Origin: Caenorhabditis elegans
Lineage: Eukaryota; Nematoda; Chromadorea; Rhabditida; Rhabditidae
NCBI RefSeq assembly: GCF_000002985.6
Contig: NC_003284.9
Span: 16,926,001 to 16,990,000, forward strand
Direction: 5' to 3'
DNA: 64,000 nt
Shown: one piece after another, positions 2,342 to 26,485 of the stretch
Numbering within the stretch: the stretch's first letter is position 1
How the letters are laid out: every line of letters starts with the position of its first letter
Made by a program: the position numbers and the translations under genes
Notes under the pieces: generated by a model
Told to the model about the DNA's origin: nothing
The model's database searches: none
Seen by the model: only the letters and a program-made list of their open reading frames with translations

Positions 2342-3650
2342 GCGGTTCTCACTGGTAAAGAAGCAGGAGAGTAAGTAAAGGGATATAAAAACAACGCGTG
2401 GAACGAAAACACAAATGTGGGGAACCGGCTGTAGGAATATGCATATGAGTAAATCGTGATCAATGAATACAATAATACAATATTTAGTGAACAGCAGACA
2501 AAAACTCTGCTGAAATTTTTTTTTCAAGTTCGGTAAGTGTCTGATGACCTAATTGTTGATGGTTAGTAGATATGTCATCTTCAAGAAATGCCAACTGTCG
2601 TCTTGAAAAAAAATTCTGTGAAAACTTTAACAACAGTATCCAAAGTTTCACATAATTTTCATACCATTTCTTTTTTACAATTGCCATTGGTAATACCTAT
2701 TTTGCAGAAATTCTACGCCTTCCTCATTTTTTTTTAATTTTCTGTATACCTATCAAACTGATAAGAAACTTTCATTCAATTTTCAAGTTCACTAAAAATG
2801 CCTTCCTCATCTTTATTTCTTGTACAAAGTATGTTATCGCAAACTACAATTTAGACATAGCAATAGTTTGGATTTTACACAATATATATCTCTCATTTCA
2901 TATTTCGCAATTATAAACTGTCCTTTTTGTTTGGTAAAAAGTTTTTATTTTAGGTCAAAATGGTCAAAATATTTAATATTGATGCGGATATGATGGCTTG
3001 CTTTGACAAGTGACTAAAAAATTTAGAGATTTTGATCCTTTTTTTTGGAATTTTTTCGCTTTTTTTGTTGATTATTTTTAGACGATTTCCAATTTTGCAA
3101 AAATTAAACAAATGGTATTTTTGGATGTTTCAGACTAGCGCGGCTTTTGGCAAGGTCGCTTTTTAGTGTTGAAAAAATGCAGACCCGTCTGTCAATTTTC
3201 TTGGGGTAGAACTACTGTATATATTTTTGGATAATATAATAAATAAATTGAAGTTCACCTTTTGCCGCTTTTATTTTTCAAGTTTTATTTTTTCTTGGTT
3301 TATATTCGTGCAAATAGAAAAGATCATAATAAGGACCTTTTTGATCATTCCCAAAAAATCTTCAAAATTTCCAAGTTTTGATTTTTTGAACTTCAGAACT
3401 GTACTTTCACAATCTATTTTTTATTTAAAAAAATATCAATTTCTAGTTTCTATTCAATTCGAATCGCTCGTCAGCCCCTTTCTCATTCTCTTTTCTTCTT
3501 TCCACATTGCAAACACACACCCCCTTCCAATTCTTTTCAAGCGAAATTTTTCGAAAAAGAGGCAGTGACGTGTAGGGAGCCAATTTCGCAATGCGACGAA
3601 TCGTTTCGAAAACACCACCCGCTTCCCTCTCCCTTTCACAATGAGTCCCC
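2342..3650. other. Intergenic AT-rich DNA, no gene seen
   Basis: No open frame here has splice support or a recognisable family. Long A/T homopolymers dominate up to about 3450. From about 3440 the composition becomes CT-rich and leads into the heat-shock promoter block. Confidence 0.6.
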
Positions 3651-4370
3651 TGTCGTCTGACTCTAGTCACACGCATCGCAGCCGCTTCGCCTGACTCCAG
3701 CTGCTACAGCTTCTACTCTGCGTCTCTTAAAGCATCCCTGCCTGGTTTCTCTGACTCTGGTCAACCGCGTCGCGTGGCACGCTTCGCGAGGCATATTATT
3801 TGTCTAGCACACACTATTGCAGTCAGATGATGTCTGGCACTCTCACGGGGAGAACGTTCTCGAAGCCTCAGCAAGAGACGCCTATAAATACGCCGCTTGC
3901 CCTACAGTCAGCCGTCATTTGTTCCCTCACCCTTACTTTCGAATTCCCTCCCCTTCTCTACCGCCCGTAACCCCGTTCTCTCTTTATTCTTCGTCAGCAA
4001 AACCGTAAGGTTCCAGGACTTCAGGATACTCCACGGCTCCACTGCTCCCAGCATCTGGATTTAGGGATATTTGGTGAGATGGTTCCAAAAACAGGACTTT
4101 TCCCCTCGGCAATCTTTTTGTGGTCTTCGTCAGTCGGTTGAAAAAATGACGCAAAATCTTGTGACTATGCATAGCTGAGGCTCTTCTTGAAATTGTTCCC
4201 AAAAAGAAACCCAAACTGCTACGTGACTCAATCCGCGAAGCACACTGTAACTACTTGACACGCTCCAACTCACTACCTCACTTGGACTCAAAAGTTGTTG
4301 GTCTTAAGGTTCGTTAGGTTTGCGCCTTGCATCATTTTTCCATCTTTCTATCATCTCTGGCGACCCATCT
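3651..4370 (+). mobile_element. Candidate solo/5' LTR with primer-binding site (decayed LTR retroelement)
   Basis: The block differs from its surroundings in being less AT-rich and CT-biased. It starts TGT at 3651 and can end TCA at 4353. It contains a TATA box (3883-3890) and a CT-rich leader. Four bases later is TGGCGACCCATC (4358-4369), the form of a tRNA primer-binding site (TGG at the start). No second LTR, gag or pol frame follows, so at most a remnant or a solo LTR remains. Termini are inferred, not proven. The alternative is a stand-alone non-coding heat-shock gene. Confidence 0.35.
3851..3890 (+). promoter_or_regulatory. Heat-shock element plus TATA box
   Basis: Positions 3851-3865 read agaacgttctcgaag, three perfectly alternating units (GAA 3852-3854, TTC 3857-3859, GAA 3862-3864), the consensus for trimeric HSF. 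TATAAATA lies at 3883-3890, 18 bp further on, which is normal heat-shock promoter spacing. Start of transcription is expected near 3910-3920, within ctacagtcagccg. The direction is rightwards, towards the satellite. Confidence 0.72.
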
Positions 4371-5377
4371 AAGGGCTTCGTGTCAACTAACCCAATGATT
4401 CCAGCTCAGATACCAACGTACCTCTACTTCCAGTTAGAAAACTCGCTCGCTTTCAGGTGTCAAAGGGATTATAGTAACAAGTCATGTGAAACTCAGTCAG
4501 TCTAAGGTTCAAAATTCCATCTCTTACTTGCCCGATACGTGACGCGAAGACGCTTATTGTACAACTCTTCCGGATAGCTCTGCCGGATCTTTGCGTGCAT
4601 TGAAATCGATTCTGTTCCTCCGTACCTATCCAAATTTCACTTGAAAACTTCAGACTTGAAATCTCTCCTTTGAAATTTTAATTTGAAAAAAATTGAATTG
4701 TCAAAAGAAAAGTCTTCTCTTACCAGAAGTTCTTCAAAAAAAACCTACCAAAATTTGAATTGTAACCTTATACTTTACTGTGCATATATATTAAACTTTA
4801 AAAAAATCTAATTAGCAAACAATAAATAATGGTAAATTCCAAAGTCTTAAGTGTTTTTTGATCCTTCTCTCTTCAAATAGGTATTTTGAAACATTTCGAA
4901 CAACTATTGCGAAATCTCGGATCATCAAGCACCCACGACGCGCTATTGCGAAATCAGCCCCGTAGTGCACTGAATGACTCATCGCTGTCTGTATCTCAAT
5001 ACCAGGTAAAAACCAATTACTTTCTCAACTGTTTTTGCAGGATTTTTTGGGATGACTTTGTTCCGGTGGCAATTAGCATTTCGCAACTTTAGGAAAATTC
5101 CAGAACGTTTTCATTTCTTCCGAAGAAAAAAACTTTGAGATTCAATTTTTGCATACTGTACTTTAATAAGTAGTTTCAGTAACAACTATTTTAGACTAAA
5201 GATGTCAGGCGCAGCAGTTATATCTTCAAAATTCAAATTGAATATCATCATTCACTCTCACTAATGGACACAAACTGAATTATTGGGTTTCTTGTAAATA
5301 AATAAAATTTTAAAATAAAATTAACTTTCAAAAATCTACTTTCAAAAACGTAAGTTCGTGTGAATCAAAAGTTTCAG

Positions 5378-5681
5378 AAAACCGTCGAATGACGCTTTAA
5401 AACTGGTTGTTGTGGAAAATAATATTGTGACTCCGGTTTATATGTGTGATGAAATGTTAGAAAATTGCAACGTGCCCAATTACTTCATACCAACATCTAT
5501 TCGCGTCTTGATGCTTTTCTTTATGAATGCCGAAGCCTTTTACTATTCTCTCAAATCGAACCGTAAATTTAAAATTTGGAAGACTAGACTATTTACTCGA
5601 ACCAAAAACTCAAACCAATCTCCCAATCAAAATTCGAAAAAACCTAAATCCCAACCGCGTAGAAAACTATCTAAAAACTAA
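5378..5681 (+). pseudogene. Orphan 3'-terminal coding exon, possibly of a membrane receptor
   Basis: After the acceptor tttcag (ending 5377) a frame runs about 100 codons to a TAA at 5679-5681. It has a hydrophobic stretch (IRVLMLFFMNAEAFYY), then a basic tail rich in Lys, Asn, Gln and Ser. A last transmembrane segment followed by a cytoplasmic tail would look like this, but I do not recognise the family. An exon-like segment at 4883-5006 (KHFEQLLRNLG onwards, donor CAG/gtaaaa) lies upstream in the same direction, but I cannot join the two in frame. The tail from 5548 onward is homologous to the satellite that follows. Either a gene fragment or the end of a rapidly changing gene. Confidence 0.4.
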
Positions 5682-8600
5682 TATCGTGTTAAGCTCTCAA
5701 ATATTCTAACTTCAAATTTAAAAATTCTGAGACTGTAACATTCTTTCCAAACCAAACCTCATGTCAAACTCTTAACAAACCGTATAGGAAACTATCTCAG
5801 TAACTAAGATCGTGTTAAACTCTCAAATGAATCCAAACTTTAAATTAAAAAAATTCTAAGACTGTACCATTCTCTCAAATCAAAATATCAGGTCAAAAAC
5901 TCTACCAAAGTTACCTAAATACCAAAATCCAAATCGCGTAGGAAGCTATCTCAATGACTAAGATCGTGTTAAACTCTCAAATCAATCCAAACTTAAAATA
6001 TAAAATTTCTAAGACTGTACCATTCTCTCCATTCAAAACCTCATGTCAAACTCTCAATCAAAATTCTAAATACCAAAATCCAAATCGCGTAGGAAACTAT
6101 CTCAATGACTAAAATCGTGTTAAACTCTCAAATCAATCCAAACTTAAAATATGAAAATTCTAAGATTGTACCATTCTCTCCAATCAAAACCTCATGTCAA
6201 ACTCTCAATCAAAATTCTAAATACCAAAATCCAAATCGCGTAGGAAACTATCTCATTAATTAAGATCGTGTTAAACTCTCAAATCAATCCAAACTTTAAA
6301 TATAAAAATTCTAAGACTGTACCATTCTCTCCAATCAAAACCTCATGTCAAACTCTCAACCAAAATTCTAAATACCAAAATCCAAATCGCGTAGGAAACT
6401 ATTTCAATAATTAAGATTGTGTTAAGCTCTCAAATCAATCAAAACTCTAAATATAAAAATTCTAAGACTGTACCATTCTCTCCAATCAAAACCTCATGTC
6501 AAACTCTCTACCAAAATTCTAAATACCAAAATCCAAATCGCGTAGGAAATTATCCCAATAACTAAGATCGTGTTGAACTCTCAATTCGATCCAAACTTAA
6601 AATATGAAAATTCTAAGACTGTACCATTCTCTCCAATCAAAACCTTATGTCAAACTCTCAACCAAAATTCTAAATACCAAAATCCAAATCGCGTAGGAAA
6701 CTATTTCTATAATTAAGATCGTGTTAAACTCTCGAATCAATTCAAACTTTAAATTTAAACATTCTAAGACTGTACCATTCCTTCCAATCAAAATATCATG
6801 TCAAACTCTCAACCAAAATTCTAAATACCAAAATCCAAATCGCGTAGGAAACTATCTCAATGACTAAAATCGTGTTAAACTCTCAAATCAATCCAAACTT
6901 AAAATATGAAAATTCTAAGATTGTACCATTCTCTCCAATCAAAACCTCATGTCAAACTCTCAATCAAAATTCTAAATACCAAAATCCAAATCGCGTAGGA
7001 AACTATCTCATTAATTAAGATCGTGTTAAACTCTCAAATCAATCCAAACTTTAAATATAAAAATTCTAAGACTGTACCATTCTCTCCAATCAAAACCTCA
7101 TGTCAAACGCTCAATCAAAATTCTAAATACCAAAATCCAAATCGCGTAGGAAACTATCTCAATGACTAAAATCGTGTTAAACTCTCAAATCAATCCAAAC
7201 TTAAAATATGAAAATTCTAAGATTGTACCATTCTCTCCAATCAAAACCTCATGTCAAACTCTCAATCAAAATTCTAAATACCAAAATCCAAATCGCGTAG
7301 GAAACTATCTCAATGACTAAAATCGTGTTAAACTCTCAAATCAATCCAAACTTAAAATATGAAAATTCTAAGATTGTACCATTCTCTCCAATCAAAACCT
7401 CATGTCAAACGCTCAATCAAAATTCTAAATACCAAAATCCAAATCGCGTAGGAAACTATCTCATTAATTAAGATCGTGTTAAACTCTCAAATCAATCCAA
7501 ACTTTAAATATAAAAATTCTAAGACTGTACCATTCTCTCCAATCAAAACCTCATGTCAAACGCTCAATCAAAATTCTAAATACCAAAATCCAAATCGCGT
7601 AGGAAACTATCTCAATGACTAAAATCGTGTTAAACTCTCAAATCAATCCAAACTTAAAATATGAAAATTCTAAGATTGTACCATTCTCTCCAATCAAAAC
7701 CTCATGTCAAACTCTCAATCAAAATTCTAAATACCAAAATCCAAATCGCGTAGGAAACTATCTCATTAATTAAGATCGTGTTAAACTCTCAAATCAATCC
7801 AAACTTAAAATATGAAAATTCTAACATTGTACCATTCTCTCCAATCAAAACCTCATGTCAAACTCTCAATCAAAATTCTAAATACCAAAATCCAAATCGC
7901 GTAGGAAACTATCTCAATAATTAAGATTGTGTTAAGCTCTCAAATCAATCCAAACTTAAAATATGAAAATTCTAAGATTGTACCATTCTCTCCAATCAAA
8001 ACCTCATGTCAAACTCTCAATCAAAATTCTAAATACCAAAATCCAAACCGCGTAGGAAACTATTTCAATAATTAAGATCGTTTTAAACTCTCAAATCAAT
8101 CAAAACTCTAAATAAAATATTTCTAAGACTGTACGATTCTCTCCAATCAAAATATCATGTCAAACTCTCTACCAAAATTCTAAATACCAAAATCCAAATC
8201 GCGTAGGAAATTATCCCAATAACTAAGATTGTGTTAAGCTCTCAAATCAATCAAAACTAAATATAAAAATTCTAAGACTGTACCATTCTCTCCAATCAAA
8301 ACCTCATGTCAAACTCTCTACCAAAATTTTAAATACCAAAATCCAAATCGCGTAGGAAACTATTTCTATAATTAAGATCGTGTTAAACTCTCGAATCAAT
8401 TCAAACTTTAAATTTAAACATTCTAAGACTGTACCATTCCTTCCAATCAAAATATCATGTCAAACTCTCAACCAAAATTCTAAATACCAAAATCCAAATC
8501 GCGTAGGAAACCATCTCAATGACTAAGATCGTGTTAAACTCTCGAATCAATTCAAACTTTAAATTTAAACATTCTAAGACTGTACCATTCCTTCCAATCA

Positions 8601-11600
8601 AAATATCATGTCAAACTCTCAACCAAAATTCTAAATACCAAAATCCAAATCGCGTAGGAAACTATCTCAATGACTAAAATCGTGTTAAACTCTCAAATCA
8701 ATCAAAACTTAAAATATAAAATTTCTGAGACTGTACCATTCCTTCCAATCAAAATATCATGTCAAACTCTCTACCAAAATTCCAAATACCAAAATCCAAA
8801 TCGCGTAGGAAACTATCTCATTAATTAAGATCGTGTTAAACTCTCAAATCAATCCAAACTTTAAATATAAAAATTCTAAGACTGTACCATTCTCTCCAAT
8901 CAAAACCTCATGCCAAACTCTAACCAAAATTCTAAATACCAAAATCCAAATCGCGTAGGAAACTATCTCATTAATTAAGATCGTGTTAAACTCTCAAATC
9001 AATCCAAACTTTAAATTTAAAAATTCTAAGACTGTACCATTTTCTCCAATCAAAACCTTAAGTCAAACTCTCAACCAAAATTTTAAATACCAAAATCCAA
9101 ATCGCGTAGGAAACTATCTCAATGACTAAGATCGTGTTAAACTCTCAAATCAATCCAAACTTAAAATATAAAATTTCTAAGACTGTACCATTCCTTCCAA
9201 TCAAAATATCATGTAAAACTCTCTACCAAAATTCCAAATACCAAAATCCAAATCGCGTAGGAAACTATCTCAATGACTAAGATCGTGTTAAACTCTCGAA
9301 TCAATTCAAACTTTAAATAAGAAAATACTAAGACTGTACCATTCTCTCCAATCAAAACCTCATGTCAAACTCTTAATCAAAATTCTAAATACCAAACTCC
9401 AAATCGCGTAGGAAACTATCTCATTAATCAAGATCGTGTTAAACTCTCAAATCAATCCAAACTTTAAATATAAAAATTCTAAGACTGTACCATTCTCTCC
9501 AATCAAAACCTCATGTCAAACTCTCAACCAAAATTCTAAATACCAAAATCCAAATCGCGTAGGAAACTATCTCATTAATTAAGATCGTGTTAAACTCTCA
9601 AATCAATCCAAACTTTAAATATAAAAATTCTAAGACTGTACCATTCTCTCCAATCAAAACCTCATGTCAAACTCTCAACCAAAATTCTAAATACCAAAAT
9701 CCAAATCGCGTAGGAAACTATCTCATTAATTAAGATCGTGTTAAACTCTCAAATCAATCCAAACTTTAAATATAAAAATTCTAAGACTGTACCATTCTCT
9801 CCAATCAAAACCTCATGTCAAACTCTCAACCAAAATTCTAAATACCAAAATCCAAATCGCGTAGGAAACTATCTCATTAATTAAGATCGTGTTAAACTCT
9901 CAAATCAATCCAAACTTTAAATATAAAAATTCTAAGACTGTACCATTCTCTCCAATCAAAACCTCATGTCAAACTCTCAATCAAAATTCTAAATACCAAA
10001 ATCCAAATCGCGTAGGAAACTATCTCAATGACTAAGATCGTGTTAAACTCTCAAATCGATCCAAACTTTAAATATGAAATTCTAAGACTGTACCATTTTC
10101 TCCAATCAAAACCTTATGTCAGATCGTGTTAAACTCTCAATTCGATCCAAACTTAAATTATGAAAATTCTAAGACTGTACCATTTTCTCCAATCAAAACC
10201 TTAAGTCAAACTCTCAACCAAAATTTTAAATACCAAAATCCAAATCGCGTAGGAAACTATCTCAATGACTAAGATCGTGTTAAACTCTCAAATCAATCCA
10301 AACTTAAAATATAAAATTTCTAAGACTGTACCATTCCTTCCAATCAAAATATCATGTCAAACTCTCTACCAAAATTCCAAATACCAAAATCCAAATCGCG
10401 TAGGAAACTATCTCAATGACTAAGATCGTGTTAAACTCTCAATTCGATCCAAACTTAAATTATGAAAATTCTAAGACTGTACCATTTTCTCCAATCAAAA
10501 CCTTAAGTCAAACTCTCAACCAAAATTTTAAATACCAAAATCCAAATCGCGTAGGAAACTATCTCAATGACTAAGATCGTGTTAAACTCTCAAATCAATC
10601 CAAACTTAAAATATAAAATTTCTAAGACTGTACCATTCCTTCCAATCAAAATATCATGTCAAACTCTCTACCAAAATTCCAAATACCAAAATCCAAATCG
10701 CGTAGGAAACTATCTCAATGACTAAGATCGTGTTAAACTCTCGAATCAATTCAAACTTAAAATATAAAATTTCTAATACTGTACCATTCCTTCCAATCAA
10801 AACCTCATGTCAAACTCTTAATCAAAATTCTAAATACCAAAATCCAAATCGCGTAGGAAACTATCTCATTAATTAAGATCGTGTTAAACTCTCAAATCAA
10901 TCCAAACTTAAAATATAAAAATTCTAAAACTGTACCATTCTCTCCAATTAAAACCTCATGTCAAACTCTCTACCAAAATTCTAAATACCAAAATCCAAAT
11001 CGCGTAGGAAACTATCTCAATGACTAAGATCGTGTTAAACTCTCAAATCAATCCAAACTTAAAATATAAAATTTCTAAGACTGTACCATTCCTTCCAATC
11101 AAAATATCATGTCAAACTCTCAACCAAAATTCTAAATACCAAAATCCAAATCGCGTAGGAAACTATCTCATTAATTAAGATCGTGTTAAACTCTCAAATC
11201 AATCCAAACTTTAAATATAAAAATTCTAAGACTGTACCATTCTCTCCAATCAAAACCTCATGTCAAACTCTCACCCAAAATTCTAAATACCAAAATCCAA
11301 ATCGCGTAGGAAACTATCTCATTAATTAAGATCGTGTTAAACTCTCAAATCAATCCAAACTTTAAATATAAAAATTCTAAGACTGTACCATTCTCTCCAA
11401 TCAAAACCTCATGTCAAACTCTTAATCAAAATTCTAAATACCAAAATCCAAATCGCGTAGGAAACTATCTCATTAATTAAGATCGTGTTAAACTCTCAAA
11501 TCAATCCAAACTTTAAATATAAAAATTCTAAGACTGTACCATTCTCTCCAATCAAAACCTCATGTCAAACTCTTAATCAAAATTCTAAATACCAAAATCC

Positions 11601-14337
11601 AAATCGCGTAGGAAACTATCTCATTAATTAAGATCGTGTTAAACTCTCAAATCAATCCAAACTTTAAATTTAAAAATTCTAAGACTGTACCATTCTCTCC
11701 AATCAAAACCTTATGTCAAACTCTCAATCAAAATTCTAAATACCAAAATCCAAATCGCGTAGGAAACTATCTCAATGACTAAGATCGTGTTAAACTCTCA
11801 ATTCGATCCAAACTTAAATTATGAAAATTCTAAGACTGTACCATTTTCTCCAATCAAAACCTTAAGTCAAACTCTCAACCAAAATTTTAAATACCAAAAT
11901 CCAAATCGCGTAGGAAACTATCTCAATGACTAAGATCGTGTTAAACTCTCAAATCAATCCAAACTTAAAATATAAAATTTCTAAGACTGTACCATTCCTT
12001 CCAATCAAAATATCATGTAAAACTCTCTACCAAAATTCCAAATACCAAAATCCAAATCGCGTAGGAAACTATCTCAATGACTAAGATCGTGTTAAACTCT
12101 CGAATCAATTCAAACTTTAAATAAGAAAATTCTAAGACTGTACCATTCTCTCCAATCAAAACCTCATGTCAAACTCTTAATCAAAATTCTAAATACCAAA
12201 ATCCAAATCGCGTAGGAAACTATCTCATTAATTAAGATCGTGTTAAACTCTCAAATCAATCCAAACTTTAAATATAAAAATTCTAAGACTGTACCATTCT
12301 CTCCAATCAAAACCTCATGTCAAACTCTTAATCAAAATTCTAAATACCAAAATCCAAATCGCGTAGGAAACTATCTCATTAATTAAGATCGTGTTAAACT
12401 CTCAAATCAATCCAAACTTTAAATATAAAAATTCTAAGACTGTACCATTCTCTCCAATCAAAACCTCATGTCAAACTCTCAACCAAAGTTCTAAATACCA
12501 AAATCCAAATCGCGTAGGAAACTATCTCATTAATTAAGATCGTGTTAAACTCTCAAATCAATCCAAACTTTAAATTTAAAAATTCTAAGACTGTACCATT
12601 CTCTCCAATCAAAACCTTATGTCAAACTCTCAATCAAAATTCTAAATACCAAAATCCAAATCGCGTAGGAAACTATCTCAATGACTAAGATCGTGTTAAA
12701 CTCTCAATTCGATCCAAACTTAAATTATGAAAATTCTAAGACTGTACCATTCTCTCCAATCAAAACCTCATGTCAAACTCTTAATCAAAATTCTAAATAC
12801 CAAAATCCAAATCGCGTAGGAAACTATCTCATTAATTAAGATCGTGTTAAACTCTCAAATCAATCCAAACTTAAAATATAAAAATTCTAAAACTGTACCA
12901 TTCTCTCCAATTAAAACCTCATGTCAAACTCTCTACCAAAATTCTAAATACCAAAATCCAAATCGCGTAGGAAACTATCTCATTAATTAAGATCGTGTTA
13001 AACTCTCGAATCAATTCAAACTTTAAATAAGAAAATTCTAAGACTGTACCATTCTTTCCAATCAAAACCTCATGTCAAACTCTCAATCAAAATTCTAAAT
13101 ACCAAAATCCAAATCGCGTAGGAAACTATCTCATTAATTAAGATCGTGTTAACCTCTCAAATCAATCCAAACTTTAAAAATAAAAATTCTAGGACTGTAC
13201 CATTCTCTCTAAACAAAACCTTAAGTCAAACTCTCAACCAAAATTTCGAATATCTAAATCCAAATCGCGTAGGAAACTATCTCAATAACTAAGATCGTGT
13301 TAAACTCTCAAATCAATCCAAACTTTAAAAATATAAATTCTAAGACTGTATCATTTTCTCTAAACAAAAGCTCATAAAAAGCTCTCAACCAAAATTCTAA
13401 ATACCAAAATCCAAATCGCGTAGGAAACTATCTCAATGACTAAGATCGTGTTAAACTCTCAATTCGATCCAAACTTAAATTATGAAAATTCTAAGACTGT
13501 ACCATTCTCTCCAATCAAAACCTCATGTCAAACTCTTAATCAAAATTCTAAATACCAAAATCCAAATCGCGTAGGAAACTATCTCATTAATTAAGATCGT
13601 GTTAAACTCTCAAATCAATCCAAACTTAAAATATAAAAATTCTAAAACTGTACCATTCTCTCCAATTAAAACCTCATGTCAAACTCTCTACCAAAATTCT
13701 AAATACCAAAATCCAAAACGCGTAGGAAACTATCTCATTAATTAAGATCGTGTTAAACTCTCGAATCAATTCAAACTTTAAATAAGAAAATTCTAAGACT
13801 GTACCATTCTTTCCAATCAAAACCTCATGTCAAACTCTCAATCAAAATTCTAAATACCAAAATCCAAATCGCGTAGGAAACTATCTCATTAATTAAGATC
13901 GTGTTAACCTCTCAAATCAATCCAAACTTTAAAAATAAAAATTCTAGGACTGTACCATTCTCTCTAAACAAAACCTTAAGTCAAACTCTCAACCAAAATT
14001 TCGAATATCTAAATCCAAATCGCGTAGGAAACTATCTCAATAACTAAGATCGTGTTAAACTCTCAAATCAATCCAAACTTTAAAAATATAAATTCTAAGA
14101 CTGTATCATTTTCTCTAAACAAAAGCTCATAAAAAGCTCTCAACCAAAATTCTAAATACCAAAATCCAAATCGCGTAGAAAAGTTTCTCAGTAACAAAGA
14201 TCGTGTCAAACTCCCAAATCAATCCAAACTTTGAATACAAAAATTCTAAGATTGCACCAATTTCTCCAACGAAAACCTCAACCCAAACTCTCAATCAAAC
14301 TTCCAAATACCAAAATCCAAATGGCGTAAGAAACCTG
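5548..14337 (+). repeat. Satellite array, 151-bp unit, about 58 copies
   Basis: Successive copies of caaatcgcgtaggaaac fall at 6081, 6232, 6383, 6534 and 6685, exactly 151 bp apart, and the pattern continues to the end. Outer copies are the most diverged: the first (5548-5693) is 146 bp, the second (5694-5819) is 126 bp, and the last ends near 14337. Inner copies fall into subtypes by short variants (tctcaatgactaag or tctcattaattaag; aaaccttaagtc or aaacctcatgtc). The unit is very A/C-rich and G-poor on the plus strand. Because 151 is not a multiple of three and every unit has stops, the array is not protein coding. Confidence 0.98.
12660..14170 (+). repeat. Higher-order duplication inside the satellite, 755-bp (5-unit) period
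   Basis: Rare variants occur twice in the same order: gtgttaacctctc at 13146 and 13901, caaaatttcgaatatctaaatc in both blocks, and the tttctctaaacaaaagctcat variant in both. The offset is 755 bp, exactly five 151-bp units. This shows recent block duplication by unequal exchange or replication slippage at the right-hand end. Confidence 0.9.
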
Positions 14338-17300
14338 TTTTTTATCTGAATTTGGCTGACCTAGAATGTTTTCTCTTCGAACCTATTCCCTAGTGCATTA
14401 TATTTTCCTAATTGATATACTTTTCATTTTGTTTCTAACACAACATTCTGGTGTTTCTTTTTAATTAATATGTAATTGTCACATTTAGTTACGTGCATAA
14501 GGTGAATTTGTAACACTCACTCGGGTTTTTTTTCGAAAATTTACTCTGTATTCTCCACGGTTTCGCACTTAGTTTTTTCTCAATTTGTCTGAACTTTTGT
14601 AACATTAAATTAACTCGCAAGTTCTGCCGGTGATGGAAAAATGTCAGTGTTCATGGTAGTTTTTTCAGAGCTAGTTTTCTCTTTACCTCATCTTTGAGCA
14701 TATTCTATCTTTTTTTAATTTTAGAGTTTTTCAGCTACTACTGATTAACGGCCAATTAACTATCTAAACGAGGGCTCAGACTTTAGTGTCATCTCAGTCG
14801 CTTATTTTTTTAAACTCTATTTCAATCGTTGCCGTACTACCTGAAGTTTGAGAATAATCAAATTTATGAGTGTCGCGGTGAAGTTTCGTTTTTTTGTTGC
14901 ATAGCATGATGTTTTCCCAGGGTCTTCGGTCTTCTTATAAAATGGTTCAGTTTTTAACTTCTCCATAATGTCAAGCTGTCGTAACTGACTAGTGAAGTCT
15001 ACTTTACAAATTGTGTGTATTGTTTGAGGCTTACTTTTCAAATTAGAATTTGCACAATTTTTTACGGTGTCAGTTTGTACATTTTTCCTAATTCTTAGCA
15101 CACTTCTTTTCACACAAAATGGTTTAATTCCGCTAATTTTTCAACTTTCGCCTTCTTCTTTCAGGTAAACGTCGTCCAAATGTATTTAAACCCTCACAGA
15201 GAATACCCTGTTAACTCATTGATTCCCACAAGATCTGCTAATACTTTTTCACTGTATCGCCTTACAGTTCGGGTCTCTCGTTTTCACCCAAGTCGTTTAG
15301 TTTTTTTTCTACGTGTGAAATTGTCATAATTTGGCGTTGGCTGCATGATTCTGTCCTTCGATTGGCACTATTTTCGGCGTCAAATTTTTAGTTTTGACAA
15401 ATGTTTAATGTGTCATAACTAAAGTGGCCATAAGCTTGTATAAGCTTGATCACAATCAAGCTCCTCGCACTATCCAGCCTTTCGCTTTGTTCCTCCAATT
15501 TTCAAAAAAGTCATTGATTTTTCCTAAATTTAAATGTAATAAAAAACCAGTGAATGTCGCAATTGTTAAACAAACATTTCTCAACCTCAACATTTTTGAT
15601 TTCATAGCTTCGAAACAGTCTTCGAATTTTCGTCACCTGCATTTCGGCCAGCTTTTTTCTGTCTACCCAAATCCAAAATTTTCCCGGTTATCTAAAATTG
15701 TAACAACACATATCTCCTTTAATTGTCAGTTTTACCAGCATGCGTTTTGCTGATTTTCTCATGTTACTTTCCAGAAATCCTCCTGATGCATTTGTAGTTT
15801 GTGGTTGTTTAATATGGTTATTCTTAAGGTATGAAATGTGATTTCCAATATTCCGTTGTCATCGTCACTTTCCTAAGTTTAGTTAAATAATCATATAATC
15901 TACATCAGATGTTTGACGTTACCACTCTAATGAGTATTTGCTAATAACAAAACTTGGTCACTTTTTAGATCTAACTCCTACCCCATTAAATTATTATGTC
16001 TTTCCGGTCTAATAATTTGTATTAGCATAAAGTTTATCGGGATGTTTCTGGTTATTCTAAAACTTCAGTGTTCATGGTGATTGTCATTATTTTCAGCTTC
16101 ATATTTCGTGTATTCAAAACTTTTCGCCTAACTCGCCATACACAGCTGTTAGCTTTTATATAAATAGGTAATAACATAACATTTTTGTGAGTGTCGAAGT
16201 TAATTGATAAGTTGCTGAGCATGACTTTTGATCAAGAAATTTTTTATGCCTTAGTTTGTTCTTTTTTCCCAGATGAAGAACAATTTATTACCGAAATAAC
16301 GCACTAGCACCAGAGATGCCTGTTAAAGTTTTTATTGAATATCTGCTAACACTTGATATCGAAAATTAAATTCTCCACGTTGTGAGTTTTTTTTTTTACA
16401 TTTCAGCTCTAATTTTCAACACATCTACTATTTTTCTTAATATGCGGTGCCCATTTGGCCAAATCATTATGCTGGTGCTCTTAAACGTTTTATGTCTTGT
16501 GACACAATCTAAGTTCAATCTCACCTGTTTACCCAACTTCTGGCTTCAAATTTTCAGTTTACAATACATTTTTCAAGGATTAGCATGACTTCCATAAATC
16601 GCAGCGCACTAGCACTAGAGGGTGCCAATCCGCCAGTGATACTAATTCTTGATCCCCAGTTTAAAATGTTCTACGTTATATTGAGATCCTTATAATTTTT
16701 GTGAGTGTCGCCGTGATCAATTATTCTTCAGTTGCGTCGCTAAAGATGACTTCTCCCGTGGTTCTTTACGTCTTCCTAGCTTAACTTGATCATGGCTTTC
16801 AAATTTTGGTGTATATAACTAGGTGTTGAGCATGATTCTCAAACGATTCTGAGCACTAGCACTAGAGGTTTTGAGGAAAAACCATATTTGTTTTTTTTTG
16901 ATTGAGAAGAACAATTTGGTTTCTGAAGTTATTTAAAAACTTACTTTCCTTTTGTTATTCCTATTGTTGCCCATTCGGTTTTAACAGGTTGCTTTTTTTA
17001 ACGATTCCGTAATACCCAATAGGTAATTTTTCGCTTGTGTGAGTTTTGAAAAAAAAAATCTGAAATTATTTTACGTCGTATTTCAACAGCAAGAAAGCTT
17101 TTTAAGATTTCGAAATTATAAAGTTACCAAAAATTTCGTCATAGTTGTTAATAAAGTTCGTCGTCATTTCATAGTAGTATTTAGGTGAAAAACTATTATA
17201 GAAAACATTGACAACTATATTTACTCTATGTTAAGTTTCTTTTTCTGAAAACTTGTTCTCTGAAAAAAGTTACCAGTTATTTTCTTTATATCCCCGAAAC

Positions 17301-17377
17301 GTTCTCAAAAATTTCTTCAATCTCTTCCACAAACTGAGAACTTCTAAATTTCACTCCTGAAACCAGTTGTTCAGCTT
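14338..17377. repeat. Non-coding region with an old, blurred dispersed/tandem repeat
   Basis: No convincing gene. Short blocks recur: gcactagcac at 16301, 16606 and 16852; agcatgact/agcatgatt near 16225, 16582 and 16829; tgtgagtgtcg near 16186 and 16698, with a related tatgagtgtcgcgg near 14865; cagtgttcatgg near 14645 and 16066; and gaagaacaattt twice. Spacing of about 250-300 bp around 16.3-16.9 kb suggests an ancient tandem repeat unrelated to the 151-bp satellite. Confidence 0.5.
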
Positions 17378-17515
17378 TGCCGTGAGGCTGTGGTGGGTAA
17401 CTCCGTCATTAGTAGTGGCACTCATTCGCCCGACGCTTCTGACACATGGAGGAATCCTGGTGGTCGGTGAACTGTCGTACTTGCACCGAACTTGCCAGGC
17501 TCGCCTCTCAGTTTG
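17378..17515. other. Less AT-rich island with a strong hairpin, possible structured RNA or its pseudogene
   Basis: About 140 bp stand out from AT-rich flanks. Positions 17457-17500 can fold as CCTGG...TCGGTG...CACCGA...CCAGG. I tried to match the segment to U1, U2, U4, U5, U6, SL, SRP and tRNA signatures from memory and could not. No open frame with splice sites covers it. Strand is unknown. Confidence 0.3.
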
Positions 17516-18165
17516 AAAAAACTCAAAAAGTTTTAGACAATTTTTGTGAAATATTCAAAAAATAAACTTCTTTTAAAATTTTTAAGACATAGTAAAATTT
17601 AGGCATTTTGCTCATTTTAAATCTTAAATTGCAATTTTAATTTTTTAATAAATCATTATGTTACAAAATAATAAAAAAATTCCAAATACTTTTTGCTGAT
17701 CTTTTTTAATCGTATTCAAATAACAAATTTTGTGAAAAAATATTAATTTCATAGAAATTTTGCTAACATTTTTGCAGACAATTTTGGCACCAAATTTGGA
17801 AACGTTATTTCGACATCGTTTTTGGATCTTTTTTTTGTGTTTGTTCGAAAAAAAATTAATAAACATTTTTTTGTATAACAACAGTGTTAATCACATCACA
17901 TAAAATTCAGATAAATTGACTATAAAGAAATTGTCCGAGCCGAACTTCAGCATTGGAACTATCAACATTGGAAGGATATCCAGTATCCAACTTGTGGACA
18001 ATAAACCTGAACAAATATTATTTATCATCAAAAGGTGGCAAGATTGGGACTCCTTCCCGCGTTTGAACAATCCAACAAGAATAAAGTGTAGCACAGATTT
18101 AATTTTTCACAAGTAGTCTATAAAAGTGAAAAAGGAGCCGCGTTACGCAAAAAAGGTACAGGTGA
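17516..18165. other. Intergenic AT-rich DNA
   Basis: Only short, unsupported frames on both strands (about 60-80 codons). No splice pattern, no recognised family. Confidence 0.5.
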
Positions 18166-18857
18166 CCAGGGGCCAAGAGCGTGCAAAAAAACTTGCACAC
18201 TCCAACACGAGGAGGCGCGATCTTGTCATAAGTATTCCTATCCCATTTTTTGATTTAGCACAACAAACGATCTGTTTTTTTTTTTTGAGGGAATAAAACA
18301 TTTTGTATATAACAAATATATTTAAAAATATATTATGGGCAAATTGCTCATTGTTTCTTGAGAAAATCTAGGTAAGAAAATTATTTCTGGAACAAATTTG
18401 AAGAAACTTCGGAAAAAAATTGTAGAGAAATTTCAAAAATAAAATTATTTAAAAAAATTTACAAAAGATTTTGTTGCAAATGTTCTTGGGGAGGTTGACA
18501 TTGGGGAAGAGTTCTGGAGTTTGACGACAGGTTCAGAAGAAGTTCACATGTCGAGGCATTTAGTCTTAAGCGCTTAAACGTAGCTTGGTGTCCTCTTCTG
18601 AAAAAAAATTATTGAAAAATTTCCAAAAATTACAGTCTACTCACGTTTTTGTGCATATTTTTGGAGTACGTTAATCGGATGCTTCTTTCCACAAGCCTAT
18701 AGCCTTCTAGTCGTGGTCATGTGTTGGTCATGTATCTTGAGCACGTCTTCTGATGGAAATGCGTCCAGAAGCTCTCTGTTCTTGTCAAGAATGTTTTTCA
18801 TTCTCTTGAGATGCTCTCGCGCTATTCCGTAGTGGAGTATGATTTTTATACGATGTT

Positions 18858-19022
18858 TTACATATCTGTCTCTTCTTCATCGATGTTCTTTTCGGATCGA
18901 TTGATCTTTTGTTGATCTTTGACTTTTTGCTCTTTTTGTTGAGCGGGATGGGCATCTGTTTGATCTGATGTGTCCATGAGGATGATTTCGTCCATTTTCT
19001 CTTGATCCGCAGTCTGTTCCAT
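18858..19022 (-). CDS. Small acidic ORF, likely terminal exon remnant of the Helitron gene
   Basis: Directly after an acceptor (ttttttcag) lies ATG at 19022 and a 54-codon frame ending in TAA at 18858. The product is hydrophilic and rich in Asp, Glu, Gln and Lys (start MEQTADQEKMDE, end DEEETDM). In the next frame coding-like sequence continues (RRDRYVKHRIK..., ARERMKN-like, LLDAFPSEDVLKIHDQH) to a TAG near 18700, then across a possible intron (donor gtgagt near 18647) to about 18574. This looks like one longer C-terminal region broken by a frameshift. I do not recognise a domain. Confidence 0.35.
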   Translation of the reverse strand: MEQTADQEKMDEIILMDTSDQTDAHPAQQKEQKVKDQQKINRSEKNIDEEETDM

Positions 19023-19221
19023 TTCTGAAAAAAATATTTGTTTATATAATATTTTGACCCTTTTTCTGTGTTTTTTGTAATTTTTTGGGGCCGGTCAACT
19101 GCATTAAAATACATGTTGTTATGTATTTTATTACAGTTGTTCCTTAATTTTTCTACATTTTCCAATTTTCCGACACTACTTGAATAACCCAATTACAGGC
19201 ACAACTTTCGAAATAATATTT

Positions 19222-19974
19222 TTACACGTTGATGCATTTCCAGCTGTTATCAGATTGCTTGATCCATGATACATAGTGTCCATTACCATCCGTTCCTGTG
19301 AATTCAGTGAAAGCTTTCAGATAATATTTGGAAGAAAGAAGTTCGACTGCTTCGTTCGAATTGAAATCTTTGAACTCGGATTTGTTGTCATGGAAAACTG
19401 GAACGAAGAGATAGTGAGCAGATTCCATAGACATCGATTTCACAAGATTTCCTTTTCCGCAAATGGTGTACTTGGTTAGAGTTGTTCCCAATCCATGAGT
19501 GAAATCGACTGTTTCTTGCAGTGTTCCGCTCTGGTGCATCACCAATCCCAGATATTTCTCGAATTTTGGTTGTTCGTCGGTAGACTCATGACACTCTTCG
19601 CATTCGGTTTTCGTGAGCAGGCGCACTTGGAATTCATATTCAAAACTTGCATCTTCGCCAATCAAATCAAAAATATTTAAGTAATTATTTGTTGATTAAG
19701 TGAAATTTACCTCTCTCAAAACATTGAAAGCTTCTGAAACATTTTGTTGACCAGCGTGATATCCCCGATTGGGCAAAAGATGACGAAGTCTTTTGACAGA
19801 TTTGACATTTCCTCGGAAGATTCGTCCAACTTCGGCACTGAGCTTCTCCTTCCGCTGCTGATGGAATTCTACAAACTTCTCGCGAATAGTTGCAGAGACA
19901 AAAAGCATGTTTAAGAGCGCGTTCATAAAGCAGTTTTGCTGGCCAAATGAATTGTCCAGAAACAAGAATGGCAT
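19222..19974 (-). pseudogene. USP-like (peptidase C19) deubiquitinase block within the Helitron
   Basis: Two open blocks, 19974-19696 and 19665-19222, separated by a short AT-rich intron-like gap (start gtaaat). The first has the Cys box NSFGQQNCFMNALLNML, like the GQNxCFxNAxxQ form of C19 enzymes. The second has a CxxC pair (TECEECHES) and the His box GNGHYVSWIK followed by SWKCINV and a stop at 19222. Known C19 proteases cleave ubiquitin from proteins. The catalytic Cys and His are present, but the core (about 240 aa) is shorter than typical USP domains and ends soon after the His box. It lies downstream of the truncated helicase in the same direction. It may be a captured host gene or a fused domain. 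Confidence 0.6.
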
Positions 19975-20046
19975 CAGAGTTTGCTCTTCTATTGGCTCAT
20001 CGAACTCAAATAATGATAATTTTTCTTGGGTGTAATTTGAGTTATC

Positions 20047-23000
20047 TCAAAAATTTGTAACTATAAAAAATGAAAGAAACACATACCTGAATTTCTTCAA
20101 CTGGTTCAGCTGGAACTTGAACTGAAGCTTGAACTGGAACTTGAACTGGAGCTGGTGGAGATCTTGGGCGACTGCACATCCCATCAAATTCATCTTCTTC
20201 TGGCATTGGGATCTGCTGAATATCTTCTGGCTGCGGAGGAGCCATTGAATTGAGAATTGTTTTCGGATCATCATTTCGAATGATTTCTGGGTAGACGACG
20301 TTTCTAACCAGAATTCCTCCTCCATATGGCGAGTCACCGTTGTGAGATCGTCTTGCGTGCCACACACGGAAATCAGCGGCTCTCTGTACTCGAGACATGG
20401 CAACACCAAGTAGGTATCTTTTTTCAGCGTGTAGTTGACGGCACCTTGACTGTGAGCTTCTGGCACGATCGGCAATATTTGTCGCCAGTCACCTCCCATG
20501 ATCATCAAAACTCCTCCAAATGGCAAATCACTCTGGTGCATTTTTTGAAAGAATTGGCTGCAGAATTCGTTTATCAGTCATGCACACCTCATCCCAGATC
20601 ACACACTCCACAGTTGCGAGAAATAGATCTAAAAACGAAAATTATCTTTAAAATAAATTTAAAATGCAAAATTGAATGTTGGAAAACAAACAATAATGGG
20701 TGAAATTTAGAATTCGGAAAAAAAATTTTATAAAAAAAAAAAAATTTTAAATTTAACTTTAAAAAAAAGTTTCTTGTTAATAAAAATAGAATGCCTGTTA
20801 TTTTGGAATAATGTGATGTTTTGAAAGAAATTGCTTCTTGATATCGAAATTTAAAAAAATGAGAAAAGTTGACTTACACTCAGGTGATGGTGCGAAACAC
20901 AAATTGTTACAATAGACTTTGCTTTGAAAGCAAAGTAAATTGTCGTGTAACAGAATGTTTTCCCCGTTCCACCTGGACCGTCCACAAACAATAATCTTGT
21001 CGTATTCCGTCCAATGGGTCCCAATTCGAGTGCTCTGTCGACAAATTTCTTCTGATTTGCGTTCAGCTTCTTGTACTGAGAGTTGGAACGCAATTCGTAA
21101 TCCGTCTTCGTGATGAGATCGATGTTTGGGTTGTCTTCTTCTTCTTCAGCAGTCAAACCGTCTGGCACATTTCCAGAAACATCCAATTCATCCAATTCGA
21201 AGTCTGCCAATGACATGCCTCCGTTGTTCAGAATGAAATTGATGTGGCGCAAAGCATGGGCTCTCTTTTCATCATCAGATCTTTTTGTCGACTTTTGATT
21301 CACAAGTTTTTCGTAACACAAATCGAAAAGCAGCTTTGGTTTTCCTGGACACGTATAGAGAAGAATCTGAGCGAAGGCTCTACGAGAAGCAGTTGGTCCA
21401 TCCAATTCAAAGATTTCATTGATAACGTTCACCCACTCGTCAATTCCATTCATCAAGCCACGAGCTTCAGCTGCTTCCAAACAGGTCTTGTACACTTTTC
21501 CTTTGTAGGTTTTCAGCTCATCAAAACTTGTCGGACCGCACATATTCATTGCGAGCAGACGGGTGGCAATAGCCTGCAGATTTCTCGCTGGTGGAGTGTG
21601 AATACGTGGCAAAATCATATGGGAAAGATCTTGCTGGCGGAAAATGAAGCTTTTGCTCGCCGTATCAAAACGGTAGTACTTTGGAACTTCGAGGAAGGTG
21701 AGATCGGTAGTTCTTCTTCCATCTCCAAGGTCTATCGGCTTTTTATTGATTCGGAACCATGCAATCACCTGAGAATCCTCCTCTTCACTCAAAATATGCT
21801 CCGCTTTTTCGGCATCAATTCCGTCCTCATCGAGGAATACAGTCGACTTGTTCTCCGCGTCCACGTAGAGCACTTGTCCAATATGTGAACTTCCGTGCAT
21901 CAAAAATCTAGACATGTTCCAGCAAGCTTCAAACGGTCCCATCACTTGGAAATCAAGATGGTAGTGAGCCTCGTTCAGCATGACACGCCGCTTTCCCTGT
22001 TCTACTGGACCTCCAGCCTTATCCATCATTCATTCTATCAGCTTCTTTGATTCGTTCCGCGACAACTTCTTTGTCCAAGTTGCGAGGAACGAATACACTT
22101 CCGCTCATAGTCAGGCTGTCCGCCGCCAGCATTCCTATTGGAACTGTTTCGCATGCTTCATGGATGGCACGGTCGGGCCCTTTGAAAATATATTTAAAAA
22201 TATATTTCAAGGAGCTGATGGAATTGACCACCTCCACATTACAGTGACAGTCATACTTCAAAAGAATGTACGGGTTATAAGCCACTACCCACTCACTGCC
22301 AGCAGTCACATACTTGGATCCTCTTTTCAGCTCAACCGTATTTGCTCTCGTTCTTCATAACTTTGCATATGGGCCGTCGTCGAGCATCGTCTCATCCAGG
22401 AATGGCTTTGGGAAGTCCTTTCCACATCTTGTCCAATGTCCCTTTTTCCCTTCGTTACAATATGAGTCAGGAGCATCTTTGCATGGGAAGTGAACATGCT
22501 TCTTCTCAACAGCTTTTCGTAGACGCATTTTCTGTAAGAAAATTTGTTCAAATGTGTTCGCAATTGCATTAAATTTATGAGCACTTGTCCAAATTTATTT
22601 AAAAACATTTGTTTTCTATTGTTTTCTATTCAATAATTTGAATGATAAGAAAAGTTGTATGAGAAGCATAAAAGTTAAATTGAATTTTTAGGAGGATTGT
22701 AAATTAAACTTGTTTTTTTTTTCAGAATTACTCATATCAAATTTTAATTATAAAAGGGAAAATTTTAAGTTAAAAGTTTTGAAAAAAAAATTAACGTACC
22801 GAGTGGAAGTCAGGATCGGATGGATCTGGAATCGGAGGCATTTCAGCAGTGGTGATGAGATCGACTTGATGTGCATTCGTGATCGGTTCCTCCAAGCAAA
22901 CCAACATATGCACATGAGGCATTCCTCTTTGCTGGAACTCAACTGAATAAGTGTACCACTTCACTTTCCCAAAGATTCCAGACTTCCTGTACACTCTTCC

Positions 23001-26000: not shown

Positions 26001-26485
26001 TTCGTCTGGGCGTTAATAGCTGCTTCTAAAAGAAAGCTCACACTTGTGATAAGAATGAACTTTATTATATGAAAAATAAGAATACAGAAAAAATGGTATG
26101 AAAAAAAAAACATTACAATAAAATCAATTATAATCTATTATTGCATTCCTTGGCTTTTGCTTAGAGGTATGAATCATCAAAGAGGTTTCATACAGCTTCG
26201 GCGTGCTTATTGAGAGCTTCGACTTCTGCATTAGTTATTTTTGCTTCCAATCGAACAGCGTCGTACGATGAAAGATGATTTTCCAATCCCACTTCGTAAT
26301 TTTCCAGCTTCTCGGCAATATCATTGTGAGCTCGGTTGCGCTGCTCCAGTATTTAGGCTCGATTTTTGAACCATTCCGCTGTCCGTGGAATAACCTGAAT
26401 ATTTGGAAATATACATTTTTCACTCTTTAATCGAATCTTGACTCACAAGTTTGTACAGATCAAACTTCTTGACGTTTCCAGCCAT
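20047..26485 (-). pseudogene. Helitron Rep/helicase (RepHel), broken
   Basis: Blocks in order on the minus strand: ATG 26485-26447; 26394-26194; 26025-25406 with zinc-finger CPFCGALHFED...CC; 25214-24274; 24163-24089; 24043-23602; 23553-22800 with NPNLFITFTGNPEW and HUH motif PHVHMLV; from 22531 with the tyrosine motif YIFKYIFKG; 22029 onward with Walker A GPGGTGKT; 20628 onward with Walker B VIWDEVCM and GGDWRQILP. Rep would nick and join DNA for rolling-circle transposition; the helicase unwinds it. Lesions: TAA at 26353-26355, TAA at 23244-23246 (after VPGTSK), TGA at 22355-22357, a tandem AATG duplication at 22027-22034, and a frameshift at or before the A-run at 20541-20546 (T-run on plus). 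The last helicase motifs are missing. Confidence 0.88.

What the first reader, a model, noticed from the sequence alone, without database searches (positions are those of the whole stretch)
3851..14337. Perfect heat-shock promoter upstream of a large satellite: an hsr-omega/HSATIII-like locus?
Seen: a perfect GAA-TTC-GAA heat-shock element 18 bp from a TATA box, pointing right, with no long protein frame directly downstream, then 8.8 kb of 151-bp tandem repeats starting 1.6 kb away. Known: Drosophila hsr-omega and human HSATIII are HSF-driven non-coding transcripts made of tandem repeats that nucleate nuclear stress bodies. Inference: this could be a nematode equivalent, with heat-induced read-through into the satellite.
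Basis: partly seen in the sequence, partly recalled or inferred. Interest (0 to 1): 0.8.

Follow-up and report, generated by a model that had tools for sequence, protein, structure and literature searches.

The report
Heat-shock promoter beside worm satellite DNA
On the C. elegans X chromosome, a promoter built like those of classic heat-shock genes points, with no recognisable protein gene in between, at a large tandem-repeat array; it may make a heat-induced non-coding RNA, but no transcript has been shown here.

Summary
The window matches C. elegans chrX:16,926,001-16,990,000. A perfect three-module HSE (3852-3864) lies 18 nt before TATAAATA (3883); the hsp-16 promoters read here have 15 or 21 nt. 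No + strand frame before the array has a homologue or Pfam family (six of the frames untested). The array is 58 units of 151 bp, 5681-14337; a genome search found no copy elsewhere. The satellite is already catalogued as X:16931765 and called species-specific (PMC4595182).

Added here: a second perfect HSE (5093-5105); AATAAA at 4821 and 5297-5314, which make termination before the array the default; a sense satellite RNA of 7% G that hardly folds.

Best reading: an orphan HSF-1 promoter makes a 0.9-1.4-kb non-coding RNA, with heat-induced read-through into the array, as inferred in print for hsp-16.2/16.41. The order of parts resembles Drosophila hsr-omega. The unit is not HSATIII-like: no three-module HSE in the array.

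HSF-1 binding, transcription, read-through and stress-body nucleation are untested. HSE plus TATA is not rare (P = 0.10 in 55 kb shuffled), and most C. elegans HSE-bearing genes do not respond to heat (PMC9148306).

The parts
3500..3900 (+). CpG-dense, GC-rich promoter-like block; TCTGCGTCTCTT at 3717 (+) and GCGTCTCTT at 3881-3873 (-)
   Evidence: GC 0.54 and 22 CpG in 3601-3900, among the highest CpG counts of the window. TCTGCGTCTCTT is shared with the hsp-16 promoters but is common in the genome: 1,091 matches against 395 for the reversed control
3852..3864 (+). perfect three-module heat-shock element GAACGTTCTCGAA
3883..3890 (+). TATA box TATAAATA, 18 nt after the HSE; start site expected near 3912 (inference)
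   Evidence: hsp-16 promoters have gaps of 15 and 21 nt
3912..4840 (+). putative short non-coding RNA (ends inferred); first 86 nt are 79% pyrimidine
   Evidence: As RNA, 3912-4680 folds less well than 20 of 20 shuffles
4821..4826 (+). AATAAA, followed about 30 nt on by a T-rich stretch: candidate proximal poly(A) site
   Evidence: AATAAA in 3912-5680 is 4 against 2.25 expected, P 0.20, so not beyond chance
5093..5112 (+). second HSE, GAAAATTCCAGAACGTTTTC: three perfect modules plus a fourth at 2 of 3, 576 nt before the array
5297..5319 (+). three AATAAA (5297, 5301, 5314): second candidate poly(A) region before the array
5681..14337 (+). 151-bp satellite, 58 units; A 0.42, C 0.23, G 0.07, T 0.28 on the + strand; 0 three-module HSE, 16 two-module GAANNTTC
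   Evidence: listed as X 16931765, 8401 bp, repeat 151, 50 repeats, CENP-A score 1.150 in PMC4595182 Table 1
14338..17560 (+). T-rich single-copy region with degenerate internal modules; AATAAA at 15538, 17150 and 17561; possible distal end of a read-through RNA (inference)

Best explanation
3852-3890 is an HSF-1-responsive, TATA-type promoter of hsp-16 design that serves no protein gene. Shown: the HSE, the TATA box, their spacing, the lack of a recognisable coding frame downstream, AATAAA signals before the array, and the satellite. Inferred: on heat shock HSF-1 binds the HSE (and perhaps the one at 5093), Pol II starts near 3912 and makes a non-coding RNA that normally ends at the signals near 4821 or 5297-5314. 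Under heat, termination weakens, as described for other C. elegans heat-shock genes, and part of the polymerase runs into the 8.7-kb satellite. The product would be a long, A/C-rich, G-poor, nearly unfolded RNA held near its X-linked locus.
For: HSE-TATA gap of 18 nt against 15 and 21 nt in the hsp-16 promoters, each of which also carries a single perfect trimer at that position. CpG-dense promoter-like block with a promoter-enriched 12-mer shared with hsp-16. No HSE+TATA in 25 of 25 stretches flanking 13 other long satellites. No homologue or Pfam family for the frames tested. Sense satellite RNA: mean MFE -0.041 kcal/mol per nt in 9 windows, against -0.188 in 25 other + strand windows and -0.162 for the antisense strand of the array. 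Precedent: heat-induced downstream-of-gene read-through, with CERP16 reads ascribed to hsp-16.2/16.41 read-through (PMC6765114, section read), and downstream transcripts on heat shock (PMC6453478, sections read).
Against: No RNA or ChIP data seen. HSE+TATA has P 0.10 in 55 kb of shuffled sequence. Most of the more than 4000 HSE-containing C. elegans genes are unaffected by heat (PMC9148306, passages). Its printed lists of top heat-induced genes hold no ZK721, C06G1 or F52G3 name (those locus names are recalled, and the lists cover annotated genes only). Schreiner et al. [quoted passage not shown] the names are in a supplement I could not open. AATAAA signals before the array favour termination. 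This satellite is not in the table of most transcribed satellites of unheated tissues (PMC9918286).
Confidence: 0.35

Rival explanations
1. The HSE/TATA is real DNA but not a heat-responsive promoter: a chance or non-responding HSE in a generic CpG-dense promoter or open-chromatin block, with the satellite an unrelated neighbour.
For: HSE trimers occur at near chance rate in the window (4 against 2.33); HSE+TATA P 0.10; most HSE-bearing C. elegans genes are not heat-induced (PMC9148306). The shared 12-mer is a common motif.
Against: hsp-16-like spacing, coincidence with one of the window's strongest CpG peaks, and orientation away from any other gene found.
Confidence: 0.3
2. A heat-induced short non-coding RNA (about 0.9 kb, 3912 to about 4840, or 1.4 kb to about 5330) is the whole product; transcription ends before the satellite, which is a bystander amplified from local sequence.
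For: AATAAA at 4821 with a T-rich stretch after it, and three more at 5297-5314. Array units have the usual pattern of diverged edges and homogenised centre. 13 other long satellites lack such a promoter in the flanks read. Long C. elegans satellites are called species-specific with one exception (PMC4595182).
Against: AATAAA count is not beyond chance (P 0.20), and heat is reported to weaken termination at strongly induced genes (PMC6765114).
Confidence: 0.25
3. The satellite works as DNA, not RNA: each unit carries TCGCGTAGGAAA, close to the X-recruitment motif MEX (TCGCGCAGGGAG), so the array would be a weak dosage-compensation-complex platform on X.
For: 9 of 12 positions match; 52 of the array's sites fit TCGCGYAGGRAR. 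The least-varied 20-mer of the unit spans it (4 mismatches in 55 units against 53.6 expected; permutation P 0.016). Exact MEX occurs 3 times in the genome, all on X. Motif clustering matters at rex sites (PMC8825453, passage).
Against: The CAGGG core is not met (TAGGA). Outside the array the T variant occurs 3 times, all on autosomes, 0 on X. The conservation signal fades when distinct variants are counted (P 0.09-0.30).
Confidence: 0.03

Closest known systems
C. elegans hsp-16 heat-shock promoters (V:1.80 Mb and V:9.09 Mb)
   Same: One perfect three-module HSE 15 or 21 nt before a TATA box; here 18 nt. Shared TCTGCGTCTCTT upstream.
   Different: hsp-16 genes are divergent protein-coding pairs; here one promoter with no recognised protein. 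Each hsp-16 intergenic region read holds two perfect trimers; here the second lies 1.24 kb downstream.
Drosophila hsr-omega (93D)
   Same: Single locus; heat-type promoter, unique leader, poly(A) signals before a tandem-repeat array (hsr-omega anatomy is recalled, save single-locus origin and speckle role, seen in passages).
   Different: No shared sequence sought beyond the recalled repeat nonamer ATAGGTAGG, which has 0 exact matches in the window. No RNA, speckles or hnRNP binding shown.
Human HSATIII / nuclear stress bodies
   Same: Tandem repeat linked to HSF (if the promoter works).
   Different: [quoted passage not shown] this array has no three-module HSE and its sense strand is 7% G.
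HSE-bearing Helitrons of C. elegans
   Same: HSF-1-bound HSEs driving heat-induced non-coding repeat RNA (PMC6765114; PMC6927752, passages).
   Different: The first HSE hits listed in the genome search include clusters at 10-bp steps; here single HSEs in single-copy DNA. A Helitron helicase relative lies 18.8-26.1 kb on the - strand but carries no such cluster in this window.

Membership tests
HSF-driven TATA-type heat-shock promoter | Perfect HSE of three or more modules close upstream of a TATA box | tested here: met
   control hsp-16 loci L017-L022
HSF-driven TATA-type heat-shock promoter | HSF-1 binding and heat-induced Pol II transcription | not testable with these tools
   no ChIP or RNA-seq data at hand; supplements not open
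hsr-omega-like locus (works-like) | Tandem-repeat array downstream of a non-coding unique region in the promoter's direction | tested here: met
hsr-omega-like locus (works-like) | Poly(A) site before the repeats giving a short and a long RNA | tested here: inconclusive
   AATAAA at 4821 and 5297-5314, but 4 against 2.25 expected, P 0.20
hsr-omega-like locus (works-like) | Intron in the unique region | tested here: inconclusive
   5' splice-like sites at 4005, 4074, 5350 and one 3' site at 5034; none beyond chance
hsr-omega (membership) | Repeat nonamer ATAGGTAGG (recalled) | tested here: not met
   0 exact matches in the window; 4 at one mismatch, none in the array
hsr-omega / HSATIII | Nuclear-retained stress RNA scaffolding a nuclear body | not testable with these tools
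   needs RNA FISH
HSATIII | HSEs within the repeat itself | tested here: not met
   0 three-module HSE in 5681-14337; 16 two-module GAANNTTC only
Helitron-borne HSE | HSE inside a repeated Helitron sequence | tested here: not met
   window 3440-5560 matches only itself in the genome search
rex site (MEX motif) | TCGCGCAGGGAG-like motif with CAGGG core | tested here: not met
   unit has TCGCGTAGGAAA, core TAGGA
rex site (MEX motif) | DCC binding | not testable with these tools
   no ChIP data at hand

The most novel reading that the evidence does not exclude
This is the nematode counterpart of hsr-omega: an X-linked, HSF-1-driven architectural RNA whose 58-unit, G-poor, unfolded satellite tail binds RNA-processing proteins and seeds some of the HSF-1 nuclear stress bodies of C. 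elegans. It predicts one such focus per diploid nucleus in XO males against two in XX hermaphrodites.
Probability: 0.06. Interest if true: 0.9.

Novelty: new variant of a known kind. Interest (0 to 1): 0.48.

Why it matters
If the satellite is heat-transcribed, flies, primates and nematodes would each pair HSF with an unrelated repeat RNA, pointing to convergence. C. elegans forms HSF-1 granules, and the RNA of the overlapping heat-induced dsRNA foci was reported as unidentified (PMC6453478). A single-copy, deletable array on X would make the nucleation question directly testable. If it is not transcribed, it is a well-placed negative showing how often HSE plus TATA occurs without function.

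Tried and rejected
Helitron origin of the HSE: rejected, the 5' region matches only itself in the genome. Protein-coding product: no Pfam family over cut-off in 7 frames scanned; no homologue for 5364-5678; for 15409-15750 the one hit is 99% identical and carries no source, so I take it as this same sequence. The codon-usage test is weak: it scored a true SID-1-family exon near zero. Known structured RNA: Rfam gives only the tRNA-Gly at 2271-2341 in the window, and no match at E<=1 in 2900-18400. Special meaning of the shared TCTGCGTCTCTT: dropped, it is a common genomic motif. ATTGCGAAAT repeats near the promoter: at chance level in the window (13 against 11.85 with one mismatch). 10-bp A/T periodicity: lower in the array (0.47) than in other stretches. 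Strand-biased mutation in the array: C>T and G>A per-site rates alike (0.44 and 0.40). Extra splice signals in the 3' region: weak (P 0.025-0.055 for + strand motifs, several tests). Extra repeated 12-mers in the 3' region: 14 against 0.99 expected, but another stretch of the window has 13. Papers: 10 searches. None of the listings showed a paper linking this satellite to heat shock, and ZK721 with heat shock, elegans and HSF-1 gave 0 papers; most subscription papers and all supplements were out of reach.
Full report
Where it is. The genome holding the window has 100,286,401 bases in 7 contigs, and the window is contig 6, 16,926,001-16,990,000. Two published coordinates agree with C. elegans: the 151-bp satellite at X 16931765 (PMC4595182 Table 1) and hsp-16.2 at chrV 1,804,000-1,806,000 (PMC9148306 passage), against the HSP20 hits at contig 5, 1,804,474-1,805,739. 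To the left lies a SID-1-family gene (recalled as chup-1, ZK721.1), then a tRNA-Gly on the - strand at 2271-2341. To the right, Helitron-type frames on the - strand begin at 18.8-19.2 kb; one matches PIF1 at 25.8 bits, just under its 25.9-bit cut-off.

The promoter. A perfect three-module HSE lies at 3852-3864 and TATAAATA at 3883, gap 18 nt. In the six hsp-16 loci fetched (L017-L022), the HSEs that have a TATA box downstream stand 15 or 21 nt from it. The block is CpG-dense and shares TCTGCGTCTCTT with hsp-16, though that motif occurs 1,091 times in the genome against 395 for its reversed control. A second perfect HSE, with a fourth module at 2 of 3, lies at 5093-5112.

How surprising it is. 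In 200 shuffles of the 55.2 kb outside the array, HSE+TATA arises at least once in 10%. The perfect-HSE count alone is 4 against 2.33 expected. As a look-elsewhere control I read 25 stretches beside 13 other long satellites, of the 27 in the published table: 0 of 25 had HSE+TATA, 5 of 25 had an HSE without TATA, 0 of 25 had TCTGCGTCTC. They were placed by published coordinates of an older assembly and not checked to abut the arrays. The genome-wide count was requested 13 times and never answered. The promoter is thus plausible and well built, but not proven by rarity.

The region between. From 3912 to 5680 the + strand has no frame with a detected homologue or family; three of its frames were scanned against Pfam and the longest, 105 codons, against 5.8 billion proteins. 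AATAAA occurs at 4821, 5297, 5301 and 5314, 4 against 2.25 expected. If used, they would end the RNA 0.36-0.84 kb before the array. That is the main sequence argument against constitutive read-through.

The satellite. 58 units were found, 52 of 57 steps being exactly 151 bp. Central units differ from the consensus by 1-9%, edge units by up to 14%. A genome search with a 303-bp piece found 30 matches, all in this array; that tool warns that its counts are lower bounds. The satellite is already in print: among those longer than 7 kb, with CENP-A score 1.150 (median 0.922), and no related satellite in the other Caenorhabditis species compared. Since CENP-A chromatin is reported to be inversely related to germline transcription (title of Gassmann et al. 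2012, seen as a reference), the array is probably not germline-transcribed at normal temperature (inference). It is absent from the printed table of the most transcribed satellites in unheated tissues (PMC9918286); its full tables were not open to me.

The RNA it would make. The + strand is 42% A, 23% C, 28% T and 7% G. Nine windows of the array fold at -0.041 kcal/mol per nt as + strand RNA, against -0.188 for 25 other + strand windows and -0.162 for the array's - strand. One 453-nt piece folded less well than 100 of 100 shuffles, and the leader 3912-4680 less well than 20 of 20, though in 200-nt windows the leader's z ranged from -1.73 to 2.75. A single-stranded A/C-rich RNA suits binding by RNA-processing proteins (inference). 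It does not suit the idea that its own folding supplies heat-induced dsRNA foci.

What is known nearby. Schreiner et al. (PMC6765114, sections read) found heat-induced ncRNAs; HSEs with HSF-1 binding were detected for 11 unclassified ncRNAs, 5 pseudogenes and no lincRNA among the induced ones; the names are in a supplement I could not open, so this locus may or may not be among them. They ascribe CERP16 reads to read-through from hsp-16.2/16.41. Melnick et al. (PMC6453478, sections read) saw heat-induced dsRNA foci partly overlapping HSF-1 granules, not reduced in an hsf-1 hypomorph, and could not say which RNA is in them. More than 4000 HSEs lie in C. elegans promoters and most such genes do not respond to heat (PMC9148306, passages).

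A side finding in the unit. The least-varied 20-mer of the unit, AAATCCAAATCGCGTAGGAA, holds TCGCGTAGGAAA, 9 of 12 identical to the X-enriched MEX motif TCGCGCAGGGAG. For TCGCGYAGGRAR the genome has 73 sites: 52 in the array, 11 elsewhere on X and 10 on autosomes. The T form outside the array has 3 sites, none on X. The low variation is significant by mismatch count (P 0.016 for 20 positions) but not by distinct variants (P 0.20). I hold this as a weak rival.

The 3' side. 14338-17560 is single copy, 39% T, and holds degenerate modules (GTGAGTGTCG, GAGCATGA, CGCACTAGCACTAGAGG). It could be the distal part of a read-through RNA, but repeated 12-mers nearly as numerous occur elsewhere in the window.

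Verdict. I put 0.35 on a heat-induced non-coding RNA with read-through into the array, 0.25 on a short heat-induced RNA with the satellite a bystander, 0.30 on a promoter that does not respond to heat, and 0.06 on a true stress-body scaffold.

Noticed in passing
window 5681-14337, in each unit: TCGCGTAGGAAA, near the X-recruitment MEX motif, sits in the least-varied part of the 151-bp unit (52 sites fit TCGCGYAGGRAR).
   Followed up: partly
window 14338-17560: T-rich single-copy region with degenerate repeated modules GTGAGTGTCG, GAGCATGA and CGCACTAGCACTAGAGG at irregular spacing.
   Followed up: partly
genome, contig 6: The exact MEX 12-mer occurs 3 times in the genome, all on this contig (2,997,121; 2,997,296; 11,094,123).
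   Followed up: no
window 5954-13594: Many satellite units carry a 52-codon open frame whose stop overlaps the next unit's ATG; the frame shifts each unit because 151 is not a multiple of 3.
   Followed up: no
window 18785-26113 (-): Helitron-type frames, one with a PIF1 match just under its cut-off, lie downstream and face the putative + strand transcript.
   Followed up: no
window 3583, 4906, 4945, 5078: ATTGCGAAAT-like sites recur around the promoter and second HSE; the window total is at chance level.
   Followed up: partly
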